A stretch of DNA of 40,412 nt from Burkholderiales bacterium (GTDB lineage: Bacteria > Pseudomonadota > Gammaproteobacteria > Burkholderiales > SG8-39): positions 1 through 40,412 of the forward strand of contig JACZJV010000064.1 of assembly GCA_014860355.1 (NCBI GenBank), read 5' to 3'. Below, one piece after another: positions 12,955 through 26,732 of the stretch. The position numbers and the translations under genes were made by a program. Positions within the stretch are counted from its first letter, which is position 1; the number at the start of each line of letters is the position of its first letter. Under the pieces are notes generated by a model. That model had not been told where the DNA came from. It worked only from the letters and a program-made list of their open reading frames with translations, and made no database searches.

Positions 12955-14469
12955 ATGCATGCTATTCCCCAAACCGCGATGATCCCCATGCAGACTGTTG
13001 CCGATTTGTCCGTGCAGACCCAGCTTTTTACCACCGCCGAATCCTGTCTGCTCGCGCCCTACGACCTGGGAGCGGGCAAGCTCGAGCAAGTGTTCGGTTC
13101 GATCATGGCGCACCGGATCGACTACGCCGACCTGTACTTCCAGTACGTGCGCTCCGAAGGTTGGAGCCTGGAGGAAGGCATCGTCAAGGCGGGCAGCTTC
13201 AACATCGAGCAGGGCGTTGGGGTACGCGCCGTCTCGGGCGAGAAGACCGCCTTCGCCTTCTCCGACGACATCAGCCTGATGGCGCTGGAAGACGCGGCCA
13301 AGGCCACGCGCGCGATTGCCCGCGCCGGGCAGGAGGGCCGCGTGCGCGCACACGGCCGCGCATCAGCTGCCCGGCGCGGCGCCGGGCGCGACCTTTATCG
13401 CGCGTCGGATCCGCTCGCTTCCCTTGCGGACGCGGACAAGGTGCGCCTGCTCTAGCGCCTGGAGGGCGAGGCGCGCGCGCTCGATCCGCGCGTGGTGCAG
13501 GTGATGGCCGGGCTCGCGGGCGAGTACGAGGTGGTGCTGGTGGCGCGCTCCGACGGCCTGATGGCGGCCGACGTGCGCCCGCTGGTGCGCCTGTCGCTCA
13601 CCGTGATCGTGGAAGAAAAAGGCAGGCGCGAGCAGGGCAGCGCCGGGGGCGGGGGGCGCTTCGACTACGCCTATTTCGATGAGGCGCGCCTGCGCCAGTA
13701 TGCGCGCACGGCGGTGGACCAGGCGGTGGTGAACCTGCGCGCGCGGCCGGCGCCGGCGGGCAAGCTGACCGTGGTATTGGGGCCGGGGTGGCCGGGAATA
13801 CTGCTGCACGAGGCCATCGGCCACGGCCTGGAGGGCGACTTCAACCGCAAGGGCAGTTCAGCCTTTTCCGGTCGGGTCGGCGAGCGCGTCGCTGCCGCGG
13901 GCGTCACCGTGATCGACGACGGCACCATACCCGACCGGCGCGGCTCGCTCAACGTCGACGACGAGGGCAATGCCAGCCAGCGCACGGTGCTGATCGAGGA
14001 CGGCATCCTGCGCGGCTATATGCAGGACAGTCTGAACGCGCGTCTGATGGGCGTGCCGGTCACCGGCAATGCGCGGCGCGAATCCTACGCCCACACCACG
14101 CTGCCGCGCATGACCAATACCTATATGCTCAACGGCGCGCGCGACCCGCGCGAGATCATCGCTTCGGTGAAGGACGGACTGTACGCGGTCAACTTCGGCG
14201 GCGGGCAGGTGGACATCACCAGCGGGAAATTCGTGTTCTCCGCTTCCGAGGCCTACATGATCGAAGACGGCAAGGTCACCCATCCGGTCAAGGGCGCGAC
14301 GCTCATCGGCAACGGGCCCGACGTGCTCAAGCGCATCAGCCTGATCGGCAGCGACATGCGCCTCGATACCGGCATCGGCACCTGCGGCAAGGAAGGCCAG
14401 AGCGTGCCGGTGGGCGTGGGGCAACCGACCTTGCGCATAGACAGCCTGACGGTAGGCGGGACTGCGTAG
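12955..14469 (+). pseudogene. tldD: tldD metalloprotease-modulator gene interrupted by an in-frame amber codon
   Basis: TldD pairs with TldE/PmbA to form a Zn-dependent protease that degrades unfolded peptides and matures microcin or CcdA-type substrates. The full-length frame is about 503 codons and matches TldD along its length: IDYADLYFQYVRSEGWSLEE, QGVGVRAVSGEKTAFAFSDD, the zinc motif [11 protein letters not shown] (His codon at 13807), and the C-terminal [24 protein letters not shown] at 13453-13455 interrupts it with no frame change, between KVRLL and [16 protein letters not shown]. Related proteins as I recall them have Glu or Arg there, so GAG to TAG is the simplest cause. The N-terminal fragment would lack the zinc site. 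The second part could start at GTG 13492 but would lack the first domain. A sequencing error or amber suppression would restore it. The start is uncertain: 12955, 12979 and 12988 are all in frame. Confidence 0.8.
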
Positions 14470-14515
14470 GGCGTGATTTGGTTTGCCACGCATACACCGC
14501 GTGTTGCATTCCGTC

Positions 14516-14721
14516 GCATGTGCCGGGCGGCCATTGCGCGCTGCGCGCGCCAACCGTGTTTTCCGCGCGGATAAAAAGCGCATCCGCACCGAAAACACGG
14601 TTATTGGTAAGAACAAGGACGGCGCTGGGGTTTCTTCCATGATCACCGATTGGGCGCGGATGTGCTTTTCATCCGTGCCCAATCGGTGATCCGCGCGGAC
14701 GGGCCGCCGTCCGCGCAAGCT
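14516..14721. repeat. Structured intergenic repeat, copy A (three hairpins)
   Basis: This ~206-bp element matches copy B at 26526-26732. It begins with a shared GC-rich segment (GCGGCCATTGCGCGCTGCGC at 14527). Hairpin 1 has arms 14552-14563 and 14591-14602 (12 perfect pairs), plus inner arms 14567-14572/14582-14587. Hairpin 2 has arms 14641-14662 and 14670-14691 (22 pairs, one G-T). Hairpin 3 has arms 14693-14702 and 14707-14716 (10 pairs), with an end nearly identical between copies. Many arm positions differ between copies yet stay paired. It fills most of the 309-bp gap between the convergent tldD and glpK genes. No gene, target-site duplication or transposase was seen with it. Function is unknown: bidirectional terminator, small structured RNA or a non-autonomous mobile repeat are all possible. 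Confidence 0.85.
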
Positions 14722-14745
14722 TTGGCGCCGCAGTTTTTAGGATGG

Positions 14746-14763
14746 CACCCGCCGAAGCGGGTG
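14746..14763 (-). terminator. Hairpin after glpK, terminator-like
   Basis: A perfect 7-bp stem (14746-14752 with 14757-14763) carries a TTCG tetraloop when read on the glpK strand, and begins 16 bases past the glpK stop codon. There is no T-run after it on that strand, so it may be a 3'-end stabiliser or weak terminator rather than a classical intrinsic terminator. Confidence 0.45.
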
Positions 14764-14778
14764 ATCGACGCCGCGCCG

Positions 14779-16269
<1,491 letters not shown>

Positions 16270-16389
16270 CTTGTTGTGTTTCCCCGTTGGCGGATTGGAG
16301 TGGTCGAAGCGTAGCTGAAATCGAATGGCGGCGGTTCCTCCGCGATATCGGAGGGTATGGGGTTTGTCCTTCGAGAACGCTCGAATAGT

Positions 16390-18015
16390 CTAAATCACCA
16401 CCCTCCGGATATTCCCCTGTCGCTGCCCTTGCGCCAAAGTTTCCGCCGCCCGGTTCATCCAGTCGGCGACCCGCTGGCGCTCGGCCGCACTGAGATGCAG
16501 TCCGCGCTTGCTGCGCCGCCACAGCACGTCATCGGCCGTACAGGCCCATTCTTCACGGCGCAGGTAGCGCAGTTCGATTTCAAACAGTTCGGGCGCCACT
16601 TCATCGCCGAGGTCGGCTCGGCTCGTTGCGCCGCCGAGTACATGGTCGATGCGGCTGCCGTAGGCGCGCGCCCAGCGCCGTGCCAGCGTCGCGTCGAGCC
16701 AGGGATGGCGCGTGCGCACGGCGATGACAAAACGCTCGAAGTCGGTGTCCGGGCGCAGGGGCTGGCCGATCCAGGCGCTGAAATCGCCGCCCGGCAGGCG
16801 CGCGCCTTCGGTCCATGCGGCGCGCGCTTCGCCGAGCATGCGGCCGATCTCGTCGGCCGCTTCCTCGGAAAGTTTGCGGAAGGTCGTAATCTTGCCGCCC
16901 CATACGCTCAAGAGCGGTGCAGCTTCGGTGTTGGTTTCCAGCAGATAGTCGCGCGTGACCGCCGACGCGTCGCCGGATGCGTCGTCGAGCAGGGGGCGCA
17001 CCCCGGCGTAGCTCCACACCACGTCAGCCGGATTCACCGGCCGCGTAAAGTAGCGGTTCGCCTGCTCGCACAGGTAGGCAAGCTCGTCGTCGCTCACACG
17101 GGCGTCGCGCGGGTCGCCGAGGAGATCCACGTCGGTGGTGCCGATCAGGGTAAAGCGCTGCTCGTATGGAATGGCGAATATGATGCGCTTGTCCGCGTTC
17201 TGAAAAATGTACGCGTGATCGTGCTCGAAGCAGCGCGGCACGACGATGTGGCTGCCTTTGATCAGACGCAGGCTCCTGGTGGCCAGCGCTTCACCATGGT
17301 CGGCGCGGGCTTCGCCGCGCAGGAAGGCCTCGGCCCACGGCCCGGCGGCATTGACCAGGGCGCGCGCACTGAGCGTGCGTTCCTGCCCGCCGGCCGAGCG
17401 CAGGGTCGCCCTCCAGCCTTGCGCGCTGCGCTGCGCGGCGGTGCAGCGGGTGCGCGTGAGGATCTGCGCGCCGTGGATTTGCGCGTCCAGTGCGTTGAGG
17501 ATGACGAGGCGCGCGTCGTCCACCCATCCGTCGGAATAGACGAAGCCCCGGGTGTAGCGGCGTTGCAGCGGCGCCCCCAGCGGATGTTTGCGCAGATCCA
17601 CCCCTGCCGATCCGGGCAGCACTACGCGCCGCGCCAGATGGTCGTAGAGGAGGAGGCCCAGCCGTATCATCCAGGCCGGCCGCATCGACGGGTCGTGCGG
17701 CATCACGAAGCGCAGCGGCCACATGATGTGCGGCGCGCTCTTCAGCAGCACTTCGCGTTCCCGCAGCGACTTGCGTACGAGCGAAAACTCGTAGTACTCC
17801 AGGTAGCGCAAGCCGCCGTGGATCAGCTTGGTCGAAGACGAGGAAGTGTGGGCGGCGAGATCGTCTTGTTCAGCCAGCACGACGCGCCAGCCGCGGCCGG
17901 CAAGGTCGCGCGCAATGCCGGCACCATTGATGCCGCCGCCGACTACGAGCACGTCGCAGGCCTGCGCAGCAGCGGCAGGTCCGCTCGGCACTGGTCCCGG
18001 GTGCGGGTCGGTCAT
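16390..18015 (-). CDS. glpD: Aerobic glycerol-3-phosphate dehydrogenase
   Basis: The 541-residue FAD-dependent, membrane-associated dehydrogenase oxidises glycerol 3-phosphate to dihydroxyacetone phosphate and passes electrons to quinone. The N-terminal dinucleotide fold is clear (DVLVVGGGINGAGIARDLAG), followed by the family signature STKLIHGGLRYLEYYEF and later VNAAGPWAEAFL, FTLIGTTDVD and a C-terminal helical domain ending with WMNRAAETLAQG. I chose ATG 18015 because GGAG stands 5 bases upstream; an earlier in-frame start at 18042 has no such support. It is divergent from glpR across about 200 bp that hold GlpR-like half-sites, and upstream of glpK in what is probably a glpDK unit. Confidence 0.95.
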   Translation of the reverse strand: MTDPHPGPVPSGPAAAAQACDVLVVGGGINGAGIARDLAGRGWRVVLAEQDDLAAHTSSSSTKLIHGGLRYLEYYEFSLVRKSLREREVLLKSAPHIMWPLRFVMPHDPSMRPAWMIRLGLLLYDHLARRVVLPGSAGVDLRKHPLGAPLQRRYTRGFVYSDGWVDDARLVILNALDAQIHGAQILTRTRCTAAQRSAQGWRATLRSAGGQERTLSARALVNAAGPWAEAFLRGEARADHGEALATRSLRLIKGSHIVVPRCFEHDHAYIFQNADKRIIFAIPYEQRFTLIGTTDVDLLGDPRDARVSDDELAYLCEQANRYFTRPVNPADVVWSYAGVRPLLDDASGDASAVTRDYLLETNTEAAPLLSVWGGKITTFRKLSEEAADEIGRMLGEARAAWTEGARLPGGDFSAWIGQPLRPDTDFERFVIAVRTRHPWLDATLARRWARAYGSRIDHVLGGATSRADLGDEVAPELFEIELRYLRREEWACTADDVLWRRSKRGLHLSAAERQRVADWMNRAAETLAQGQRQGNIRRVVI

Positions 18016-18082
18016 GGAGTCTCCTTGCTCGGCGGCGGGCATTATTCGTGGACCGCTAGCTCGGCCTCTGCCGGGCCGATTA

Positions 18083-18102
18083 AAATGTTCGTATCTGTTC
18101 TT
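18083..18102. promoter_or_regulatory. Candidate GlpR operator in the glpD-glpR intergenic region
   Basis: AATGTTCG at 18084-18091 matches one half of the E. coli GlpR operator consensus (WATGTTCGWT, inverted). Instead of an inverted second half, TGTTC is repeated directly ten bases later (18086-18090 and 18096-18100), one helical turn apart. It lies about 70 bp upstream of the glpD start and about 120 bp upstream of glpR, well placed to control both. The call rests on the half-site match and on the divergent glpR gene. Confidence 0.5.
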
Positions 18103-18168
18103 ATTTGAGCTTTTTACATCACATATGGCCGAATTGCAAGCGCGGTTTGACTCGCTATGTTGTGTTTA

Positions 18169-18196
18169 TTGACCGTATCTACTAGGCTAGTCCTAT
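18169..18196 (+). promoter_or_regulatory. Possible glpR promoter
   Basis: TTGACC (18169-18174) and TCCTAT (18191-18196) are spaced 16 bases apart and end 25 bases before the GTG start of glpR. The -35 element is good and the -10 element is weak. No other pair in this stretch looked better. Confidence 0.35.
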
Positions 18197-18221
18197 TCTG
18201 CAGATGCATTCAGGTGGCTGT

Positions 18222-18986
18222 GTGACTCCCAATCCGAGACAGCTTGACTTGTTGGATCAGGTGCGCGCCCGCGGTTCCGTGTCCTTGGAGACGCTGGCGG
18301 CCTCGTTCGAGGTGACGCTGCAAACCCTGCGGCGCGATGTGAAGCTGCTATCGGAGGCCGGCCTGCTGGCGCGTTTTCACGGCGGGGTGCGGGTCCCGGG
18401 TTCCACCACCGAGAACATCGCTTACCGCCAGCGCCAACTGCTCAACGAGGCGGCCAAGCAGCGCATCGCGCGCGCGATCGCCCTGGCCGTGCCCGAGGGC
18501 TGCTCGCTGATCATCAACATCGGCACGACCACGGAAGCCATTGCGCGGGAGTTGTTGCGGCACAAGGGCTTGCGCGTGATCACCAACAATCTGAACGTGG
18601 CGGCGATCCTCTCGGACAATGCCGACTGCGAGGTGATCGTGGCCGGAGGCGTAGTGCGCTCGCGCGATCGCGGCATCGTAGGCGAAGCTACCGTGGATTT
18701 CATCCGCCAGTTCAAGGTCGATATCGGATTGATCGGCATCTCGGGCATCGAAGACGACGGCAGCCTGCGCGATTTCGACTATCGCGAGGTGCGGGTCGCT
18801 CAGACCATCATCGAGCGCTCGCGCGAGGTGTGGCTCGCCGCCGACCATAGCAAGTTCAACCGCCCCGCGATGGTGGAGGTGGCCCGCCTGAGCCAGGTGG
18901 GAACGCTGTTTACCGACGCGCCTCCTCCGAGCCCTTTTCCTGCCCTGCTTGGCGAAGCCGGGGTCGCCTGCAAGGTCGCGGCATGA
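18222..18986 (+). CDS. glpR: Glycerol-3-phosphate regulon repressor, DeoR family
   Basis: The 254-residue product matches E. coli GlpR from end to end. It has an N-terminal DeoR winged helix (LLDQVRARGSVSLETLAASF, then TLRRDVKLLSEAGLLARFHGG) and a sugar-phosphate-binding DeoRC domain with INIGTTTEAIARELL, TNNLNVAAIL, AGGVVRSRDRGIVGEATVDF, IGLIGISGIEDDGSLRDFDY and DHSKFNRPAMV. In E. coli it represses glp genes and is released by glycerol 3-phosphate. The GTG at 18222 is chosen over the ATG at 18204 because it has AGGTGG just upstream and lines up with the E. coli N-terminus. Its position divergent from glpD and glpK fits local control of that operon. Confidence 0.92.
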   Translation: MTPNPRQLDLLDQVRARGSVSLETLAASFEVTLQTLRRDVKLLSEAGLLARFHGGVRVPGSTTENIAYRQRQLLNEAAKQRIARAIALAVPEGCSLIINIGTTTEAIARELLRHKGLRVITNNLNVAAILSDNADCEVIVAGGVVRSRDRGIVGEATVDFIRQFKVDIGLIGISGIEDDGSLRDFDYREVRVAQTIIERSREVWLAADHSKFNRPAMVEVARLSQVGTLFTDAPPPSPFPALLGEAGVACKVAA

Positions 18987-19085
18987 GGATACGCATCGCG
19001 CGCCTTTGAACCCGCGGGGGAATTATCCCGGGATGTCCTTGTGTTAGTATTCACTACCCGTTTCGATGACATTTTTGCACCTGCA

Positions 19086-19643
19086 ATGCCGCTTTCCGCC
19101 GATACCCCGCCCCGCATCCGCAAACACACCCGCAGCGTCCGCTTCGAAGGCTATGCGCGCGCGGACGGCCTGTGGGATATCGAGGCCCATCTCACCGACG
19201 TCAAGCCCGACGACTACCCGCTCGCCCCTGGCGTGCGGCCTGCCGGCAGCCCGGTGCACGACATGTGGATCCGTCTGACCATAGACCGGCGCATGAACGT
19301 GATCAGCGCGGAGGCCTGCACCGACGCCATGCCCTATCCGCCGTATTGCGCTGCGGTTACGCCGGATTACGCCGCGCTGGCGGGATTGAACCTGATGCGC
19401 GGGTTCCGCAAGGCGCTGTACGAGCGTTTCGGCCTGGCGAGCGGCTGCACGCACCTGACCGAGCTGCTAGTCCAGTTTCCTTCGGCGGCGATCCAGGTAC
19501 TCGCGGGCGAGCAGCGCGACAACCATGACGACGGCACCAAACCGTTCCAGCTCGATCGCTGTCACGCGCTCGATACCGGCGGCGAGGCGGTGCGCCTGTA
19601 CTATCCGCGCTGGCAGCGCGCGGCGAAGACCGGCACCGATTGA
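19086..19643 (+). CDS. DUF2889 family protein
   Basis: The 185-residue cytosolic protein has the pattern of the DUF2889 family: N-terminal HTRSVRFEGYARADGLWDIE, then DYPLAPGVRPAGSPVHDMWI, and a central DAMPYPPYCAAV ... LAGLNLMRGFRKALYERFG ... GCTHLTELL. The Cys/His/Glu residues in that last segment could bind a metal. Function is unknown; DUF2889 genes are often found near degradation gene clusters in proteobacteria. ATG 19086 is used because the family start (MPLSADTPP) fits there; an in-frame ATG at 19041 adds an unlikely leader. There is no strong ribosome-binding site. An FNR-type box begins 7 bases after its stop and belongs to the next gene. Confidence 0.7.
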   Translation: MPLSADTPPRIRKHTRSVRFEGYARADGLWDIEAHLTDVKPDDYPLAPGVRPAGSPVHDMWIRLTIDRRMNVISAEACTDAMPYPPYCAAVTPDYAALAGLNLMRGFRKALYERFGLASGCTHLTELLVQFPSAAIQVLAGEQRDNHDDGTKPFQLDRCHALDTGGEAVRLYYPRWQRAAKTGTD

Positions 19644-19649
19644 CGCCGA

Positions 19650-19663
19650 TTGACCTGGGTCAA
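19650..19663 (+). promoter_or_regulatory. FNR-type inverted repeat upstream of sucC
   Basis: TTGACCTGGGTCAA is a perfect TTGAC-N4-GTCAA inverted repeat, 58 bases before the sucC ATG. It fits the FNR/Anr/Dnr-type target TTGAY-N4-RTCAA. The sequence 29.5 bp beyond the box centre (TGATCA, 19686-19691) is only a weak -10, so activator geometry is less clear here than at fhs. Confidence 0.6.
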
Positions 19664-19721
19664 TGCGCCCGCCAGGCTCTCTCCCTGATCATCCCATTGC
19701 GATCCACACAGGAAGCCAGAA

Positions 19722-20888
19722 ATGAAAATCCACGAATATCAGGCCAAGGAAGTGCTGCGCAAGTACGGTGTGCCCACGCCGCGGGGAGTGCCTTGCTTTT
19801 CCGTCGATGAGGCGGTCAAGGCGGCCGAGGCCATACCGGGCAAGGTGTGGGTGGTCAAGGCGCAGATACACGCCGGCGGCCGCGGCAAGGGCGGCGGGGT
19901 GAAGCTCGCGAAAACCGTGGACGAGGTGAAAGCCTACGCCGGACAGATTCTCGGCATGCAACTGAAAACGCACCAGACCGGCCCCGAAGGGCAGAAAGTG
20001 CGCCGGCTGCTGATCGAAGAGGGCGCCGACATCAAGCGCGAACTCTACGTCGGCATGGTGGTGGACCGTGTCACGCAGAAGGTGTGCCTGATGGCCTCGA
20101 GCGAGGGCGGCATGGACATCGAGGAAGTCGCCGCACGCACGCCGGAGAAAATCCACAAAGTGTTCGTCGATCCGGTGACCGGCTTGAAGGACGCCGAAGC
20201 CGACGCGGTTGCGGCGAAAATCGGCATTCCGGCCGCATCCGTGCCGCAGGCGCGCGCAGTGCTGCAGGCGCTGTACAAGGCATTCTGGGACACCGATGCC
20301 AGCCTGGCCGAGATCAACCCGCTGGTGCTGACCGGCGATGGCCGCGTGGTGGCGCTCGATGCAAAGATCAATTTCGATTCGAATGCGCTATTCCGCCACC
20401 CGGACCTGGTGGCGCTGCGCGACCTCGACGAGGAAGACGCGGCGGAAATCGAGGCGTCGAAATTCGACCTGTCGTATATCTCGCTCGACGGCAACATCGG
20501 CTGCCTGGTGAACGGCGCCGGCCTTGCGATGGCGACCATGGACACGATCAAGCTGTACGGGGCCGAGCCGGCCAATTTCCTCGACGTCGGCGGCGGCGCC
20601 ACGGCGGAAAAAGTGACCGAAGCGTTCAAGATCATGCTCAAGAACCCGAAGGTCAAGGGGATACTGGTCAATATCTTCGGCGGCATCATGCAGTGCGACA
20701 CCATTGCCAAGGGCGTGGTGGCCGCGGCGCGCGAAGTGAACCTGTCCGTGCCCCTGGTGGTGCGCATGAAGGGGACCAATGACGAGATGGGCAGGCAGAT
20801 CCTCAAGGATTCCGGCCTGCCTATCATTTCCGCCGACAACATGGCCGATGCGGCGCAGAAGATCGTCGCCGCGGTCGCGGGCAAGTGA
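19722..20888 (+). CDS. sucC: Succinyl-CoA synthetase (ADP-forming) subunit beta
   Basis: The 388-residue beta subunit has the normal length. It begins [20 protein letters not shown], the ATP-grasp N-terminus that binds ADP/ATP and Mg ([20 protein letters not shown]), and ends with the CoA-ligase domain ([58 protein letters not shown]). With SucD it interconverts succinyl-CoA and succinate with substrate-level phosphorylation in the TCA cycle. A ribosome-binding site (AGGAAG) lies about 7 bases upstream of ATG 19722. sucD follows after 95 bases that hold hairpins. The upstream FNR-type box suggests control by an FNR-family regulator. Confidence 0.96.
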
Positions 20889-20895
20889 TTGCAGC

Positions 20896-20960
20896 CGCTG
20901 TCGCAGGAATCCGGGTGACAGCGCCGAATTAGGGGAGCACGAGGCGCGCTATCCCCTCGT
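20896..20960 (+). other. sucC-sucD intercistronic hairpins (two mutually exclusive)
   Basis: A 7-bp stem (20896-20902 with 20917-20923) follows the sucC stop. Next, AGGGGA (20931-20936) can pair with TCCCCT (20952-20957), or ACGAGG (20939-20944) with CCTCGT (20955-20960). The second and third options share bases and cannot form together. sucD begins 24 bases later. They could protect the upstream message or set the SucC:SucD ratio; that is inference. Confidence 0.4.
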
Positions 20961-20983
20961 ATTCAAGAGCAAAAGGAAAAGCA

Positions 20984-21868
<885 letters not shown>

Positions 21869-21895
21869 ACAGTACATCCGAATAGCCGCGAGAAC

Positions 21896-21934
21896 GGGGG
21901 CGGGAGGGCCTGTGTCACCCAGGAGCCCGCGCCC
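21896..21934 (+). terminator. Imperfect GC-rich hairpin after sucD
   Basis: A G-rich arm (21896-21912) and a C-rich arm (21920-21934, CAGGAGCCCGCGCCC) can form a long, imperfect stem with a short loop beginning about 27 bases after the sucD stop. No T-run follows, so it is only terminator-like. It separates sucCD from the formate dehydrogenase genes. Confidence 0.35.
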
Positions 21935-22004
21935 GATGTGATCTGTAGCCAGGCGGATCGCAAGTGTCTTGAACGCAAGAAATTGTTTTGCACAGAGGAC
22001 ATTT

Positions 22005-23687
22005 GTGAATCAAGTCATCATCCCGATCAAGGCCGAGCGCAAGCAGCGCTCCAAACTCAAGGGCCGCACGCCCGATGCGCAGGCGCTCGCCGAGGTGCGC
22101 GCGCTGCTGGGCGATGCGCCGCGCCGGCGCGATCTGCTCATCGAGCACCTGCACAAAATCCAGGACCGCTACGCGCAGCTGCGTGCCGGGCACCTGGTCG
22201 CGCTGGCGGCGGAATTGAATATGGCCCTGGCCGAGGTCTACGAGGTCGCGACCTTTTATCACCATTTCGATGTGGTCAAGGAAGGCGAGGCCCCGCCCGC
22301 GGCGATCACCGTGCGTGTATGCGAGTCGCTCGCCTGTGCCATGGCCGGGGCGAAGGAGCTGCTGGAAAAACTGCCCGCCATCCTCGGGCGCGAAGTGCGC
22401 GTGATTCCAGCGCCTTGCGTCGGGCGCTGCGAAGCCGCGCCGGTGGCCGTGATCGGGCAGAATCCGCTGCCGCACGCGAGCGTCGACGGGGTGAGGAAGC
22501 TGGTCGCCGCGAAGGCGCTGAAACAAAAACCGGGCAAGTACCTCGCCTACGCCGAATACCGCAGGAACGGCGGCTACGCCATGCTGCAGCAATGCCTCGC
22601 CGGCAAGCGCGATTACCGCAAACTCATGCAGGCGATGGAAGATTCCGGCCTGCGCGGCCTGGGCGGCGCGGGTTTCCCGGCCGGGCGCAAGTGGAAACTC
22701 GTGCGCGCGGAGCCCGAGCCGCGCCTGCTGGCGGTGAACATCGACGAGGGCGAGCCGGGCACGTTCAAGGACCGCTACTATCTCGAGCGCGATCCGCACC
22801 GCTTCCTCGAAGGCATGCTGGTCGCCGCCTGGACCGCGGGCATCGCCGAGGTCTACATCTATTTGCGCGACGAATATGCCGGCTGCCGCGCGATCCTCGA
22901 AAAGGAAATCGCGGCGCTCAGGGCCGATCCGCCCTGCGCCCTGCCGCCGATACATTTGCGCCGCGGCGCGGGCGCCTATATCTGCGGCGAGGAATCGGCG
23001 ATGATCGAATCGATCGAGGGCAAGCGCGGCATGCCGCGCCTGCGCCCGCCCTACGTCGCCCAGGTCGGCCTGTTCGGCCGCCCGACGCTGGAGCACAACA
23101 TGGAGACGCTCTACTGGGTGCGCGAAATCCTCGAGCGGGGCGCAGCCTGGTTCGCCGGCCACGGCCGCCACGACAGAAAGGGGCTGCGCTCCTTCTCGGT
23201 CTCCGGGCGCGTGAACAAACCGGGCGTGCACCTGGCGCCGGCGGGCATCACGGTGAAGGAGCTGATCGCGGAGTATTGCGGCGGCATGATGGCAGGACAC
23301 GAGTTCTACGCCTATCTGCCCGGCGGCGCCTCGGGCGGCATCCTGCCCGCTTCCATGGGCGACATCCCGCTGGACTTCGACACCCTGCAGGCCTACGGCT
23401 GCTTCATCGGCTCGGCGGCGGTGATGATCCTGTCCCAGCGCGACCGCGCCACCGATGCCGCGCGCAACCTGATGCATTTCTTCGCCGAGGAATCCTGCGG
23501 CCAGTGCACGCCCTGCCGCGTGGGCACGGCCAAGGCGCTTAAGCTCCTGGATGAACCGAAATGGAACCAGGCGCTGCTGAACGAACTCTCACAAGTGATG
23601 ATCGACGCCTCGATCTGCGGCCTGGGCCAGGCCGCGCCCAACCCGGTGCTCAGCGTGATGAAATATTTCCCGCATGAGCTCGCGTGA
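22005..23687 (+). CDS. fdsB: NAD-dependent formate dehydrogenase, fused gamma/beta (NuoE-NuoF-like) diaphorase subunit
   Basis: The 560-residue protein joins two complex I-like modules. Residues ~20-160 are a NuoE/FdsG-type thioredoxin-fold domain with [2Fe-2S] ligands in VCESLAC and PCVGRC. The rest is a NuoF/FdsB-type domain with an FMN/NAD-binding GLRGLGGAGFPAGRKW, the acidic VNIDEGEPGTFKDRYYLERD, the NAD-region GAGAYICGEESAMIESIEG and the [4Fe-4S] motif ESCGQCTPCRVGT. It should pass electrons from FdsA to NAD+ in the cytosol. In classical fds operons the first module is a separate gene (fdsG); no separate one is seen here. Start GTG 22005 is chosen for the strong AGAGGA ribosome-binding site at 21994-21999. 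Its end overlaps no gene; fdsA starts 23 bases later. Confidence 0.9.
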   Translation: MNQVIIPIKAERKQRSKLKGRTPDAQALAEVRALLGDAPRRRDLLIEHLHKIQDRYAQLRAGHLVALAAELNMALAEVYEVATFYHHFDVVKEGEAPPAAITVRVCESLACAMAGAKELLEKLPAILGREVRVIPAPCVGRCEAAPVAVIGQNPLPHASVDGVRKLVAAKALKQKPGKYLAYAEYRRNGGYAMLQQCLAGKRDYRKLMQAMEDSGLRGLGGAGFPAGRKWKLVRAEPEPRLLAVNIDEGEPGTFKDRYYLERDPHRFLEGMLVAAWTAGIAEVYIYLRDEYAGCRAILEKEIAALRADPPCALPPIHLRRGAGAYICGEESAMIESIEGKRGMPRLRPPYVAQVGLFGRPTLEHNMETLYWVREILERGAAWFAGHGRHDRKGLRSFSVSGRVNKPGVHLAPAGITVKELIAEYCGGMMAGHEFYAYLPGGASGGILPASMGDIPLDFDTLQAYGCFIGSAAVMILSQRDRATDAARNLMHFFAEESCGQCTPCRVGTAKALKLLDEPKWNQALLNELSQVMIDASICGLGQAAPNPVLSVMKYFPHELA

Positions 23688-23709
23688 CGGCCAGCAGGAA
23701 GGAGAACCT

Positions 23710-26517
23710 ATGACTGCAATCAGCAAGCAAGAGATTGCCGCGCTGCCGGTGGAGTTCAAGCTGAACGGCAAGACCGTGATCGGGCGCGCGGACGAGACCA
23801 TCATCCAGACGGCCAGGCACTACGGCATAGCCATTCCGCACCTGTGCTACAAGGAAGGCCTGCGCCCGGACGGAAACTGCCGCGCCTGCGTGGTCGAGAT
23901 CAAAGGCGAGCGCACGCTCGCGCCCTCGTGCTGCCGCACGCCCAAGGACGGCATGGAGGTGAGCACCGACAGCGCGCGCGCACTGGCAAGCCAGAAAATG
24001 ATGCTGGAGCTGCTGCTCTCGGACATGCCCGGCGAGGCCTATACGCCGGCGTCCGAACTCGATCGCTGGGCGCGCGAACTGAAGCTGGGCAAGCCGCGCT
24101 TTGCCCCCAGGGCACAACCGGCGGCCGACATTTCGCACCCGGCGATAGCGGTGAACCTGGATGCCTGCATCCAGTGCACGAGGTGCCTGCGCGCCTGCCG
24201 CGAAGCGCAGGTCAACGACGTCATCGGCTACGCCTTCCGCGGCGAGCATTCGAAGATCGTGTTCGACTTCGACGACGCCATGGCGGCGAGCACCTGCGTC
24301 GCCTGCGGCGAGTGCGTGCAGGCCTGCCCCACCGGGGCGCTGATGCCGGCGCGAAACGCAGCGCTCGCGCCTGCGCAAAAAACCGTCGACTCGGTCTGCC
24401 CCTACTGCGGCGTAGGCTGCCAGCTCACCTACCACGTGACGGACAACAAGATCGTCCATGTGCAGGGCCGCGACGGCCCGGCCAACCATGGCCGCCTGTG
24501 CGTGAAAGGGCGCTACGGTTTCGACTATGCGCATCACCGCCAGCGTCTGACCGTGCCGCTGATGCGCAAACCCGGTGTGCCCAAGCGCGGGGATTTCAGC
24601 GTCGATCCGGACAATTGGCGCGACGCCTTCCGCGAGGCGAGCTGGGAGGAGGCGCTAGCTTTTGCCGCCGGCGGGCTTGCCGGCATCCGCGATGCGCATG
24701 GCAAGCAAGCGCTCGCTGGCTTCGGCTCGGCCAAAGGTTCGAACGAGGAGGCTTACCTGTTCCAGAAACTGGTGCGCACCGGTTTCGGTTCCAACAACGT
24801 CGACCATTGCACGCGCCTGTGCCACGCCTCCTCGGTGGCAGCGCTGCTCGAGGGCGTGGGTTCGGGCGCGGTGTCCAACCAGGTGAGCGACGTGCAGCAT
24901 GCGGAAGTGGTGCTGGTGATCGGCGCCAATCCCACCGTCAACCACCCGGTGGCGGCGACCTGGATCAAGAACGCGGTCAGGAACGGCACCAAGCTCATCG
25001 TCGCCGATCCGCGGCGCACCGAGCTCGCGCGCCACGCGACGCATGTGCTGCAGTTCAAGCCCGATACCGACGTCGCCTTGCTCAACGCCATCATGCACGT
25101 GATCGTCGCCGAAGGGCTGGTGAACCGGGACTTCGTGCGCGATCGCACCTCGGGTTATGCAGCGCTGGCGGCGAACGTGAAGAAATACAGCCCGGAGAAG
25201 ATGGCGCCCGTGTGCGGCATCCCGGCGCAAACCATCCGCGAAGTCGCGCGGCTGTACGCCACGTCCAGGGGCTCGATGATCCTTTGGGGCATGGGCATAT
25301 CGCAGCACGTGCACGGCACCGACAACGCGCGCTGCCTGATCGCGCTCGCCCTCATGACCGGCCAGATCGGCCGGCCCGGTACCGGTCTGCATCCCCTGCG
25401 CGGCCAGAACAATGTGCAGGGCGCGTCGGACTCGGGGCTGATCCCGATGATGTACCCGAATTATCAGCGCGTGGACAATCCCGAGGCCAGGGCGCGTTTC
25501 GCCAGTTTGTGGGGCGCAACCGAGCTCGATCCGAAGCCCGGCCTCACCGTGGTCGAGATCATGCACGCGGCGAAGAAAAAGGAAATTCGCGGCATGTACG
25601 TCATGGGCGAGAATCCAGCCATGTCCGATCCCGATGTCGATCACGCGCGCGAGGCGCTGGCTGCGCTCGATCACCTGGTGGTGCAGGACATCTTCCTCAC
25701 CGAGACCGCCTATCTTGCCGACGTGGTGCTGCCCGCCACCGCCTGGCCGGAGAAGGACGGCACGGTCACCAATACCGACCGCATGGTGCAGCTCGGACGC
25801 AAGGCGATCGAGCCCCCGGGCGAGGCGAAGGATGATCTGTGGATCATCCAGGAACTGGCCAGGCGCATGGGCCTCGGCTGGAACTACGGCCATGTGTCCG
25901 AAGTGTTCGTCGAGATGCGCGCCGGCATGGACTCGATCGGCGGCATCACCTGGGAGCGCCTCGAGCGCGATTCCGCGGTGACCTATCCCTGCGAGGCTGA
26001 AGGCGATCCGGGGCAGTCGGTGGTATTCACCGATCACTTCCCCACCGCCACCGGCCGCGCCAGGTTCGTCCCCGCGGACCTGATTTCGGCCGACGAGCAG
26101 CCGGACGCGGACTATCCCATGGTGCTGATCACCGGGCGGCAACTGGAGCACTGGCATACGGGCGCGATGACGCGGCGCGCGGGCGTGCTCGACGCGATCG
26201 AGCCCGAGCCCATGGCATCGTTCCATCCGCTCGACCTCGACGGCTTCGGCGTGAGTTCGGGCGAGGTGGTGACGGTGGCTTCGCGCCGCGGTTCGATATC
26301 GCTGTACGCGCGCGCCGACGCCGGCACCCCCAGGGGCGCGGTCTTCATTCCGTTCTGTTATTACGAAGCGGCGGCGAACAAGCTCACCAACCCGGTGCTC
26401 GACCCGTTCGGCAAGATCCCGGAGTTCAAGTACTGCGCGGTAAAGGTAAGCAAGGGCGGGCCCGCGCCGGTGCATTCGAGTTTCGGCGGCGGGCAGTCGT
26501 TGAATGCGGCGCCTTGA
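23710..26517 (+). CDS. fdsA: NAD-dependent formate dehydrogenase, molybdopterin catalytic subunit
   Basis: A 935-residue Mo/W-bis-MGD enzyme oxidising formate to CO2. From the N-terminus there is a [2Fe-2S] ferredoxin domain (C46, C57, C60, C74/C75), two ferredoxin-like [4Fe-4S] motifs (CIQCTRCLRACREAQ and CVACGECVQACPTGAL), then the molybdopterin oxidoreductase domain with its own cluster (VCPYCGVGC). The Mo-ligand position reads VDHCTRLCHASS, with Cys371 where some homologues have selenocysteine. The C-terminal MGD-binding domain carries LITGRQLEHWHTGAMTRRAG. ATG 23710 has AAGGAG six bases upstream. It follows fdsB directly, so the pair forms the catalytic core. The chaperone genes fdsC/fdhD and the small fdsD are not in the window. 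Repeat copy B lies right after the stop. Confidence 0.92.
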   Translation: MTAISKQEIAALPVEFKLNGKTVIGRADETIIQTARHYGIAIPHLCYKEGLRPDGNCRACVVEIKGERTLAPSCCRTPKDGMEVSTDSARALASQKMMLELLLSDMPGEAYTPASELDRWARELKLGKPRFAPRAQPAADISHPAIAVNLDACIQCTRCLRACREAQVNDVIGYAFRGEHSKIVFDFDDAMAASTCVACGECVQACPTGALMPARNAALAPAQKTVDSVCPYCGVGCQLTYHVTDNKIVHVQGRDGPANHGRLCVKGRYGFDYAHHRQRLTVPLMRKPGVPKRGDFSVDPDNWRDAFREASWEEALAFAAGGLAGIRDAHGKQALAGFGSAKGSNEEAYLFQKLVRTGFGSNNVDHCTRLCHASSVAALLEGVGSGAVSNQVSDVQHAEVVLVIGANPTVNHPVAATWIKNAVRNGTKLIVADPRRTELARHATHVLQFKPDTDVALLNAIMHVIVAEGLVNRDFVRDRTSGYAALAANVKKYSPEKMAPVCGIPAQTIREVARLYATSRGSMILWGMGISQHVHGTDNARCLIALALMTGQIGRPGTGLHPLRGQNNVQGASDSGLIPMMYPNYQRVDNPEARARFASLWGATELDPKPGLTVVEIMHAAKKKEIRGMYVMGENPAMSDPDVDHAREALAALDHLVVQDIFLTETAYLADVVLPATAWPEKDGTVTNTDRMVQLGRKAIEPPGEAKDDLWIIQELARRMGLGWNYGHVSEVFVEMRAGMDSIGGITWERLERDSAVTYPCEAEGDPGQSVVFTDHFPTATGRARFVPADLISADEQPDADYPMVLITGRQLEHWHTGAMTRRAGVLDAIEPEPMASFHPLDLDGFGVSSGEVVTVASRRGSISLYARADAGTPRGAVFIPFCYYEAAANKLTNPVLDPFGKIPEFKYCAVKVSKGGPAPVHSSFGGGQSLNAAP

Positions 26518-26525
26518 GTTCTGGC

Positions 26526-26732
26526 GCATGTCACGAGCGGCCATTGCGCGCTGCGCGCGCCAACCGCGTTTTTGTACGGATGAAAGACGTATCCGTACAA
26601 AAACGCGGTTATGAATAAAGGCAAGGGCAATTGGGGGTGGTTCTTGTACAAGATCGCTGATTGAGTGCGGACGGATTCATTGTCCGCGCTCAATCAGCGA
26701 TCCGCGCGGACGGGACGCCGTCCGCGCAAGCT
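26526..26732. repeat. Structured intergenic repeat, copy B (three hairpins)
   Basis: This ~207-bp second copy of the element also found at 14516-14721 starts 9 bases after the fdsA stop. Hairpin 1 has arms 26562-26581 and 26591-26610 (20 perfect pairs, 9-base loop). Hairpin 2 has arms 26652-26672 and 26682-26702 (21 pairs, one G-T). Hairpin 3 has arms 26704-26713 and 26718-26727. Compared with copy A, hairpin 2 shows matched changes at pairs 5, 7, 13 and 21, and hairpin 1 at pairs 6 and 12, so pairing is kept while sequence drifts. It occupies most of the 358-bp gap between fdsA and fhs; the rest of that gap is the fhs promoter region. Confidence 0.85.

What the first reader, a model, noticed from the sequence alone, without database searches (positions are those of the whole stretch)
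14516..26732. Two-copy intergenic element with three hairpins and compensatory base-pair changes
Copies at 14516-14721 and 26526-26732 share ends and layout but differ in the stems. In hairpin 2, pairs 5, 7, 13 and 21 changed on both arms; in hairpin 1, pairs 6 and 12 did. Remaining differences give G-T pairs. This is what selection for secondary structure, or arm-to-arm conversion, leaves behind. Each copy sits just past a stop codon (tldD, fdsA). The structure was seen directly; the function is open.
Basis: seen in the sequence. Interest (0 to 1): 0.75.

Follow-up and report, generated by a model that had tools for sequence, protein, structure and literature searches.

The report
Dispersed mobile double-hairpin repeat family
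The two copies belong to a large family of short mobile-like DNA elements in one bacterial genus, whose inner hairpins stay base-paired through matching changes on both arms while the ends that once let the element move have decayed.

Summary
The two window copies belong to a dispersed family: 89 non-overlapping places in this genome by my hand count (halves included), matches in all 14 held genomes of the genus, in 3 of 22 genomes of sister genera and 0 of 24 of other families. Each core (about 185 nt) holds four hairpins, not three: two of 21-22 bp (H1, H2) joined by a linker, each with a short GC hairpin (H0, H3). The halves are inverted relatives of one module. Covariation is overwhelming.

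The full unit is about 280 bp with ~19-bp terminal inverted repeats, some empty sites and probably a TA target: MITE-like. No transposase partner was found in the two families searched. It favours gene 3' ends; fdsA's stop codon lies inside one terminal repeat.

At orthologous loci the outer parts have decayed (66-70% identity), while H0, H3 and the stem apices are 91-94% identical and mid-stems drift with pairing mostly kept, also in isolated halves. So mobility alone does not explain the pairing. Most likely the inner module is kept by local selection for hairpin structure; arm-to-arm template-switch correction is the main rival. Nearest in shape are the CIR repeats of Caulobacter. I rate it a new variant of a known kind.

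The parts
14491..14509 (+). Copy 1: degenerate left terminal inverted repeat (CATACACCGCGTGTTGCAT, 5 mismatches to TATAYRYGGCGWCTTAAAT by my count)
   Evidence: sequence; consensus
14534..14716 (+). Copy 1: core with four hairpins
   Evidence: model match 192 bits (this copy is in the model's alignment)
14536..14550 (+). Copy 1 H0: short GC hairpin (GCGCGC/GCGCGC)
   Evidence: helix 1, 98.6% of cells paired
14552..14602 (+). Copy 1 H1: arms 14552-14572 and 14582-14602
   Evidence: helix 2 (14 of 21 pairs with double changes)
14603..14640 (+). Copy 1: linker between H1 and H2
   Evidence: alignment A2; linker identity in orthologs 74%
14641..14691 (+). Copy 1 H2: arms 14641-14662 and 14670-14691
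   Evidence: helix 3 (13 of 22 pairs with double changes)
14693..14716 (+). Copy 1 H3: short GC hairpin, gccg loop
   Evidence: helix 4
14717..14770 (+). Copy 1: right extension of the gccg-loop type, without a recognisable right terminal repeat (limit approximate)
   Evidence: G-type consensus
26501..26519 (+). Copy 2: degenerate left terminal inverted repeat (TGAATGCGGCGCCTTGAGT), which contains the fdsA stop codon TGA at 26515-26517
26544..26727 (+). Copy 2: core with four hairpins
   Evidence: model match 176 bits (this copy is in the model's alignment)
26546..26560 (+). Copy 2 H0
   Evidence: helix 1
26562..26610 (+). Copy 2 H1: arms 26562-26581 and 26591-26610, 100% complementary
26652..26702 (+). 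Copy 2 H2: arms 26652-26672 and 26682-26702
26704..26727 (+). Copy 2 H3

Best explanation
It is a MITE-like, non-autonomous mobile element of about 280 bp. It ends in ~19-bp inverted repeats, probably inserts at TA dinucleotides, and was spread by a transposase that I did not find. It settled mainly at gene 3' ends, where stop codons offer TA (inferred). In the copies seen here movement looks old. The inner module, two inverted relatives of [21-22 bp hairpin with loop GYGCTTTTC + short GC hairpin], is kept at many loci by local selection for hairpin structure: mid-stem bases drift and pairing is restored by compensatory change. My most likely function (inferred, not shown): an orientation-independent hairpin block behind genes. 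In the RNA of either strand the module nearest the 3' end has the same polarity, and it would shield or process transcript 3' ends; or a hairpin-binding host protein recognises it in DNA. Shown: family, anatomy, terminal repeats, covariation, outer decay against inner conservation, 3'-end location, and three readable filled/empty site pairs. Inferred: transposase class, TA target, function.
For: Copies: 149 model matches on both strands in the own genome, 150 of 5047 candidates scored; 89 non-overlapping places by my hand count, 52 at 132 bits or more. Covariation. Terminal repeat: 127 matches with up to 2 mismatches in 13 of the genus's 14 genomes (own genome 3, G012 none), reversed-pattern control 0 in all 14; of 20 repeat regions that I chose to fetch, 18 hold a core. 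Filled/empty sites. Orthologous positions, 43 pairs, mean flank identity 88%: H3 94%, apices 93-94%, H0 91%, linker 74%, left and right extensions 66% and 70%. Half copies with no other piece within 300 nt stay paired: 225 of 240 Watson-Crick pairs in 11 right halves, 220 of 234 in 11 left halves. Context of 192 placed copies: convergent 66, co-directional 119, divergent 7; one per ortholog group: 45, 81, 6 of 132. Stop codon inside the left repeat (9) or within 10 nt outside it (15) in 24 of 37 copies with an upstream gene and a recognisable left repeat; 7 of the 9 are the fdsA locus in different genomes. The H2 apex of copy 1 matches the H1 apex on the other strand.
Against: No transcript, 3'-end or protein-binding data. 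The polarity of mismatches (H1: A-C 108, G-T 39; H2: G-T 186, A-C 81) is the same whether the neighbouring genes run ++, +- or --, which does not fit selection on one transcribed strand. Orientation is balanced among co-directional copies (66 vs 53). In H2 the conservation pattern is weaker than in H1 (H2 mid 85%, base 87%; H1 mid 77%, base 93%). Some loci have 92-95% identical flanks but an element only 77-79% identical, so replacement or exchange between copies also acts. Terminator scans gave 1 hit (0.7 expected) and 2 hits (0.5 expected, one of them outside the element); promoters 0.
Confidence: 0.55

Rival explanations
1. Arm-to-arm correction: replication template switching at imperfect hairpins repeatedly copies one arm onto the other, so paired changes arise in one step and no selection for the hairpins is needed.
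For: Double changes exceed coincidence in place (9 vs about 1.3 in 7 strict pairs; 56, of which 48 Watson-Crick, vs 8.8 in 20 pairs). 17 of the 48 are of transversion type, which have no G-U intermediate. A paired indel separates window copy 2 from its G008 ortholog. Only 30 of 62 single changes involve G-T, against 46 of 57 in RNase P between this genome and 10 relatives. 2 of 234 H1 loops look inverted. The mechanism is known in E. coli (PMC7202029, abstract and part of the introduction seen) and proposed for RNA stems (PMC8794818, abstract, part of the introduction and the discussion seen).
Against: The RNase P control, a selected RNA, also shows many doubles of which some are transversions (own vs 10 relatives: 31 double, 8 of them transversions, against 57 single), so those features do not prove correction. 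It does not explain why H1 apex and base, H0 and H3 keep their sequence while linker and mid-H1 drift, nor the loop polarity (231 of 234 H1 loops A-rich, 228 of 235 H2 loops T-rich). In the strictest pairs single changes (21) outnumber doubles.
Confidence: 0.25
2. Structure is kept only because it is needed for transposition, and the copies are recent.
For: Terminal repeats, filled/empty sites and dispersed copies.
Against: No near-identical copies among 132 full copies (mean identity 0.765, maximum 0.94). Copies sit at orthologous positions of different species (46 groups), the outer parts decay faster than the hairpins, and isolated halves stay paired.
Confidence: 0.07
3. A REP/REPIN system moved by a RAYT (TnpA-REP) transposase.
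For: Inverted doublet of hairpins, extragenic, tandem copies with recurrent 61-62 or 17 nt spacing; compensatory changes are also reported in REPINs (PMC3116915, passages seen).
Against: The copies have ordinary terminal inverted repeats outside the hairpins. Of 21 Y1_Tnp loci (in 11 of 14 genomes), 1 has an element within the ~1.5 kb fetched; two of the three genomes without a hit (G003, G009) have many copies.
Confidence: 0.05
4. Exchange between copies (gene conversion) spreads ready-made stems and conserved parts, giving apparent compensation.
For: Several orthologous positions with 92-95% identical flanks carry an element at family-average identity; at tldD the arrangement differs between species.
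Against: Single scattered double changes in otherwise nearly identical orthologs (window copy 2, as L276, vs L277) and the apex/mid/base pattern of H1 are not tract-like. No tract analysis was done.
Confidence: 0.08

Closest known systems
[quoted passage not shown]
   Same: Two long inverted-repeat arms joined by a linker, intergenic, TA at the termini (PMC2229807, section 4 and part 1 of section 5 read)
   Different: CIR is ~110 bp, listed without terminal inverted repeats, with a conserved GANTC motif; here ~280 bp, terminal repeats, extra GC hairpins, GANTC in 5 of 235 H2 apices. CIR sequences were not fetched or compared
ERIC/IRU
   Same: Small structured repeat, TA at the termini, target duplication (PMC2229807)
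   Different: ERIC is 127 bp; non-CIR repeats are described there as folding by pairing of their two ends, here separate internal hairpins
Correia/NEMIS and RUP
   Same: Terminal inverted repeats with TA, TA target for RUP, non-autonomous (PMC2229807)
   Different: About 105-155 bp; no matching IS630-type partner found here; sequences not compared
REPIN/BIME
   Same: Inverted doublet of conserved modules in extragenic space, compensatory changes (PMC3116915, passages)
   Different: No RAYT link found, ordinary terminal repeats, longer hairpins
BOX (Streptococcus)
   Same: Modular structured repeat with variable make-up (PMC3049150, passages)
   Different: Host and module order differ; sequences not compared

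Membership tests
Bacterial MITE | Short, non-coding, many dispersed copies | tested here: met
   89 places by hand count, unit about 240-310 nt, 2 of 201 copies inside a called ORF
Bacterial MITE | Terminal inverted repeats | tested here: met
   degenerate in the window copies and in most own-genome copies
Bacterial MITE | Target-site duplication | tested here: inconclusive
   TA at both ends fits, but the empty sites come from other species and are too diverged to prove it
Bacterial MITE | Empty sites | tested here: met
   3 readable of 7 comparisons shown: L307 vs own, L084 vs L153, L418 vs own; loss instead of insertion is not excluded for any one of them
Bacterial MITE | Partner transposase with the same terminal repeats | tested here: not met
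   12 DDE_3 loci without matching repeats; no convergent repeat pair 0.7-3 kb apart among the 127 matches. Other transposase families were not searched, and an old MITE family need not have a living partner
REPIN/RAYT | RAYT gene flanked by the repeat | tested here: not met
   1 of 21 Y1_Tnp loci near an element
CIR | Two arms plus linker, TA termini | tested here: met
CIR | Conserved GANTC site | tested here: not met
   GANTC in 12 of 237 cores, 5 of 235 H2 apices, 1 of 234 H1 apices
Known RNA family (Rfam 15) | Match at gathering score | tested here: not met
   0 matches in the window
Rho-independent terminator | GC hairpin followed by a T run | tested here: not met
   None of the four hairpins is followed by a T run in the alignment; scans gave 1 and 2 weak hits with 0.7 and 0.5 expected

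The most novel reading that the evidence does not exclude
Dozens of copies of a once-mobile element have been taken over, genus-wide, as an orientation-independent hairpin module behind genes: two inverted modules give each strand one correctly oriented hairpin pair. The mobility ends decay while the hairpins evolve by paired changes, partly through one-step template switching. One genome would then be a replicated natural test of how long DNA/RNA hairpins stay paired.
Probability: 0.3. Interest if true: 0.75.

Novelty: new variant of a known kind. Interest (0 to 1): 0.5.

Why it matters
Whether paired changes in stems come from selection through mismatched intermediates or from one-step template switching is an open question (PMC8794818). 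Here some 90 places in one genome, with orthologous positions in related genomes, give many trials, and stems can be compared with the drifting linker of the same element. It also shows a repeat whose end supplies the stop codon of a host gene (fdsA).

Tried and rejected
Rfam at gathering score, viral contigs by exact H3 motif, plasmids and phages by blastn: no match. RAYT linkage rejected. An IS630-type partner was not found, nor a pair of terminal repeats at IS spacing. A first count on 43 orthologous-position pairs gave 151 double against 76 single changes and seemed to show one-step change. I dropped that reading because several pairs are replaced copies at 77-79% identity. Stricter sets give Watson-Crick doubles against singles of 76 vs 102 (29 groups), 48 vs 62 (20 groups) and 8 vs 21 (7 groups). 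3 of 46 groups were left out as shorter than 165 nt. Some remaining pairs (e.g. L227/L324) still look rearranged. A first count of 'solo' halves (34 right, 46 left) included halves lying beside others in broken arrays; I recounted truly isolated ones (11 and 11). Of seven filled/empty comparisons, L355/L228, L052/L107, L378 and L050 were not clear. Gene calls are from my own codon-usage script, not a gene finder. The profile that finds copies favours well-kept ones, so pairing percentages are biased upwards, and copies from orthologous loci are not independent. The RNase P structure is an RNAalifold prediction. The 'Rhodospirillales' copy (L126) lies on a contig about 87% identical to a Betaproteobacterial one; I treat it as misbinned.
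Full report
Observation. The two copies align end to end and their flanks do not; the shared end motifs occur only twice in the window and never in shuffles. Both fold far better than shuffles (z -8.1 and -11.1). It missed a fourth hairpin (H0), two true mismatches in hairpin 1 of copy 1 and the outer parts of the element.

Family. BLAST in the window's genome (5.09 Mb, 202 contigs) gave 48 pieces with 40 of 136 candidates scored. A covariance model built on 48 copies gave 149 matches on both strands with 150 of 5047 candidates scored. By my hand count of that list these are 89 non-overlapping places, some of them half elements, and 52 of them at 132 bits or more. In 60 relatives (at most 13 candidates scored each), 13 of 13 other genomes of the genus have it, three of them (G004, G007, G012) with only 1-2 matches; so have 3 of 22 genomes of other genera of the family (2, 7 and one weak match) and 0 of 24 of other families. 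That the genus is uncultured is my inference from these titles. Phages, plasmids, viral contigs and Rfam: none.

Anatomy. On the + strand: left terminal repeat, ~30 nt, H0 (GCGCGC-GCGCGC), H1 (21-22 bp, loop gaaaagcgc), linker with GGGGTTTTATACAAG, H2 (22 bp, loop tgcttttc), H3 (GCGCGGACGG-CCGTCCGCGC), ~50 nt, right terminal repeat. H1-H0 on the - strand and H2-H3 on the + strand look like the same module: the 19-nt apex CGGATGYGCTTTTCATCCG matches H2 of copy 1 on + (0 mismatches) and H1 on - in copy 1 (1 mismatch) and copy 2 (3 mismatches), 0.04 matches expected in the window; H2 of copy 2 is not within 3 mismatches. Of 225 copies with enough flank, 113 have gccg-like and 112 other, mostly T-rich, H3 loops; only the second type shows the right terminal repeat in its consensus. 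Tandem copies recur at 61-62 or 17 nt spacing. Clean losses of H2 (L196, L197, L202, L205-L207) or H1 (L199, L201, L203, L204) occur among the 43 places printed, as do half elements.

Mobility. The terminal repeat TATAYRYGGCGWCTTAAAT has 127 matches with up to 2 mismatches in 13 of 14 genomes (own genome only 3) and none for the reversed pattern. I fetched 20 of these regions: 18 hold a core, and 7 have both ends, six of them 237-307 nt apart around a core and one 114 nt apart without one. Readable filled/empty sites are three of seven compared: L307 (G008) against the own genome, where about 280 nt separate two genes that are 11 bp apart in the empty site; L084 against L153; L418 against the own genome. 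The ends begin and end in TA and no longer duplication is visible, so a TA target is likely but unproven. No partner transposase was found.

Window loci across the genus. At tldD (copy 1) full copies are present in G008, G004, G001 and G006 (H0 partly lost) and, behind an extra right half, in G011; G002 has a right half only, G013 a right and a left half, G009 a left half with traces of the other, and G012 and G007 none. At fdsA (copy 2) copies are present in G008, G006, G005, G013 and G002 and, by the range of their matches up to the element, in G011 and G009; G012 and G007 have none; G001, G003, G004 and G010 could not be judged. In copy 2 the fdsA stop codon lies inside the left terminal repeat, at the same offset in seven genomes, own included.

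Location. Of 201 copies with enough flank, 192 could be placed: convergent 66, co-directional 66 and 53, divergent 7; 2 lay inside a called ORF and 7 lacked a neighbour call. Counting one per ortholog group: 45, 81 and 6 of 132. In the window's own gene calls convergent and divergent neighbours are equally common (4 and 4 of 26 pairs, my count). Of 37 copies with an upstream gene and a recognisable left repeat, the stop codon ended inside the repeat in 9 (7 at fdsA) and within 10 nt outside it in 15.

How the stems evolve. Over 48 copies 28 of 59 pairs show changes on both sides, with 0 of 500 shuffles as high. Among 132 full copies the mean identity is 0.765 and the maximum 0.94, so no fresh copies were seen. 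245 unique full copies gave 46 groups at orthologous positions. In 43 pairs with mean flank identity 88%: H3 94%, H0 91%, H1 apex/mid/base 93/77/93%, H2 apex/mid/base 94/85/87%, linker 74%, loops 78-80%, outer extensions 66-70%. The ends needed for mobility have decayed while the inner hairpins have not. In pairs chosen by linker identity alone (not by the stems) there are 48 Watson-Crick double changes (31 transition, 17 transversion type), 8 other doubles and 62 single changes at 0.80 or more (20 groups), and 8 (4 and 4), 1 and 21 at 0.85 or more (7 groups); coincidence predicts 8.8 and 1.3 doubles. Isolated halves stay 94% Watson-Crick paired (11 right, 11 left).

Selection or correction. 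For correction: transversion-type doubles, the paired indel, few G-T among singles (30 of 62, against 46 of 57 in RNase P between this genome and 10 relatives) and 2 of 234 inverted-looking H1 loops. Against reading too much into this: the RNase P control itself has 31 doubles, 8 of transversion type, beside its 57 singles. For selection: conserved H0, H3, apices and H1 base, loop polarity, singles outnumbering doubles in the closest pairs. Mismatches are polar: A-C over G-T in H1 (108 vs 39), G-T over A-C in H2 (186 vs 81), in ++, +- and -- gene contexts alike. This fits two inverted modules that each tolerate G-T on their own strand, but not one transcribed strand; about half of the H2 G-T cells come from pairs 7 and 8.

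Known relatives. By architecture it is nearest to CIR of Caulobacter, by terminal repeats to Correia, RUP and ERIC, by doublet design to REPINs (PMC2229807 section 4 and part 1 of section 5; PMC3116915 and PMC3049150 passages; PMC10969869 two passages). Two library searches, one for three of its sequence motifs (0 papers) and one for MITEs with Burkholderiales (1 paper, abstract start seen, on Methylobacterium), showed no description; most subscription papers are not in the library. Filing: MITE-like, new family; function open.

Noticed in passing
window 12955-13455 and 13492-14469: tldD is split into two ORFs matching model positions 9-138 and 154-481 of TldD: either a real frameshift or an assembly error.
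   Followed up: partly
window 26501-26519: The element's terminal repeat provides the last codons and the stop of fdsA; genomes G012 and G007, which lack the element there, have a different sequence at the end of the gene.
   Followed up: yes
L126 (MIAC01000171.1): A contig titled Rhodospirillales carries the element and is about 87% identical to a Betaproteobacterial contig over three long stretches: probably misbinned.
   Followed up: partly
L008, L063, L064, L069 upstream of the core: A distinct 5' variant 'cgcgctgcgccgcgaagcaagtcctcctgggggacgcgcgcc' replaces H0 in some copies.
   Followed up: no
L369 1230-1412, L139 2071-2244: H1 loops that look reverse-complemented, a possible trace of template switching.
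   Followed up: no
L479 (550-663): A 114-nt derivative with both terminal repeats but no core.
   Followed up: no
L486 (515-533): A terminal-repeat match in the own genome with no core nearby.
   Followed up: no
L222: A variant with the same H1/H2-type hairpins but different short hairpins and flanks, perhaps a second subfamily.
   Followed up: no
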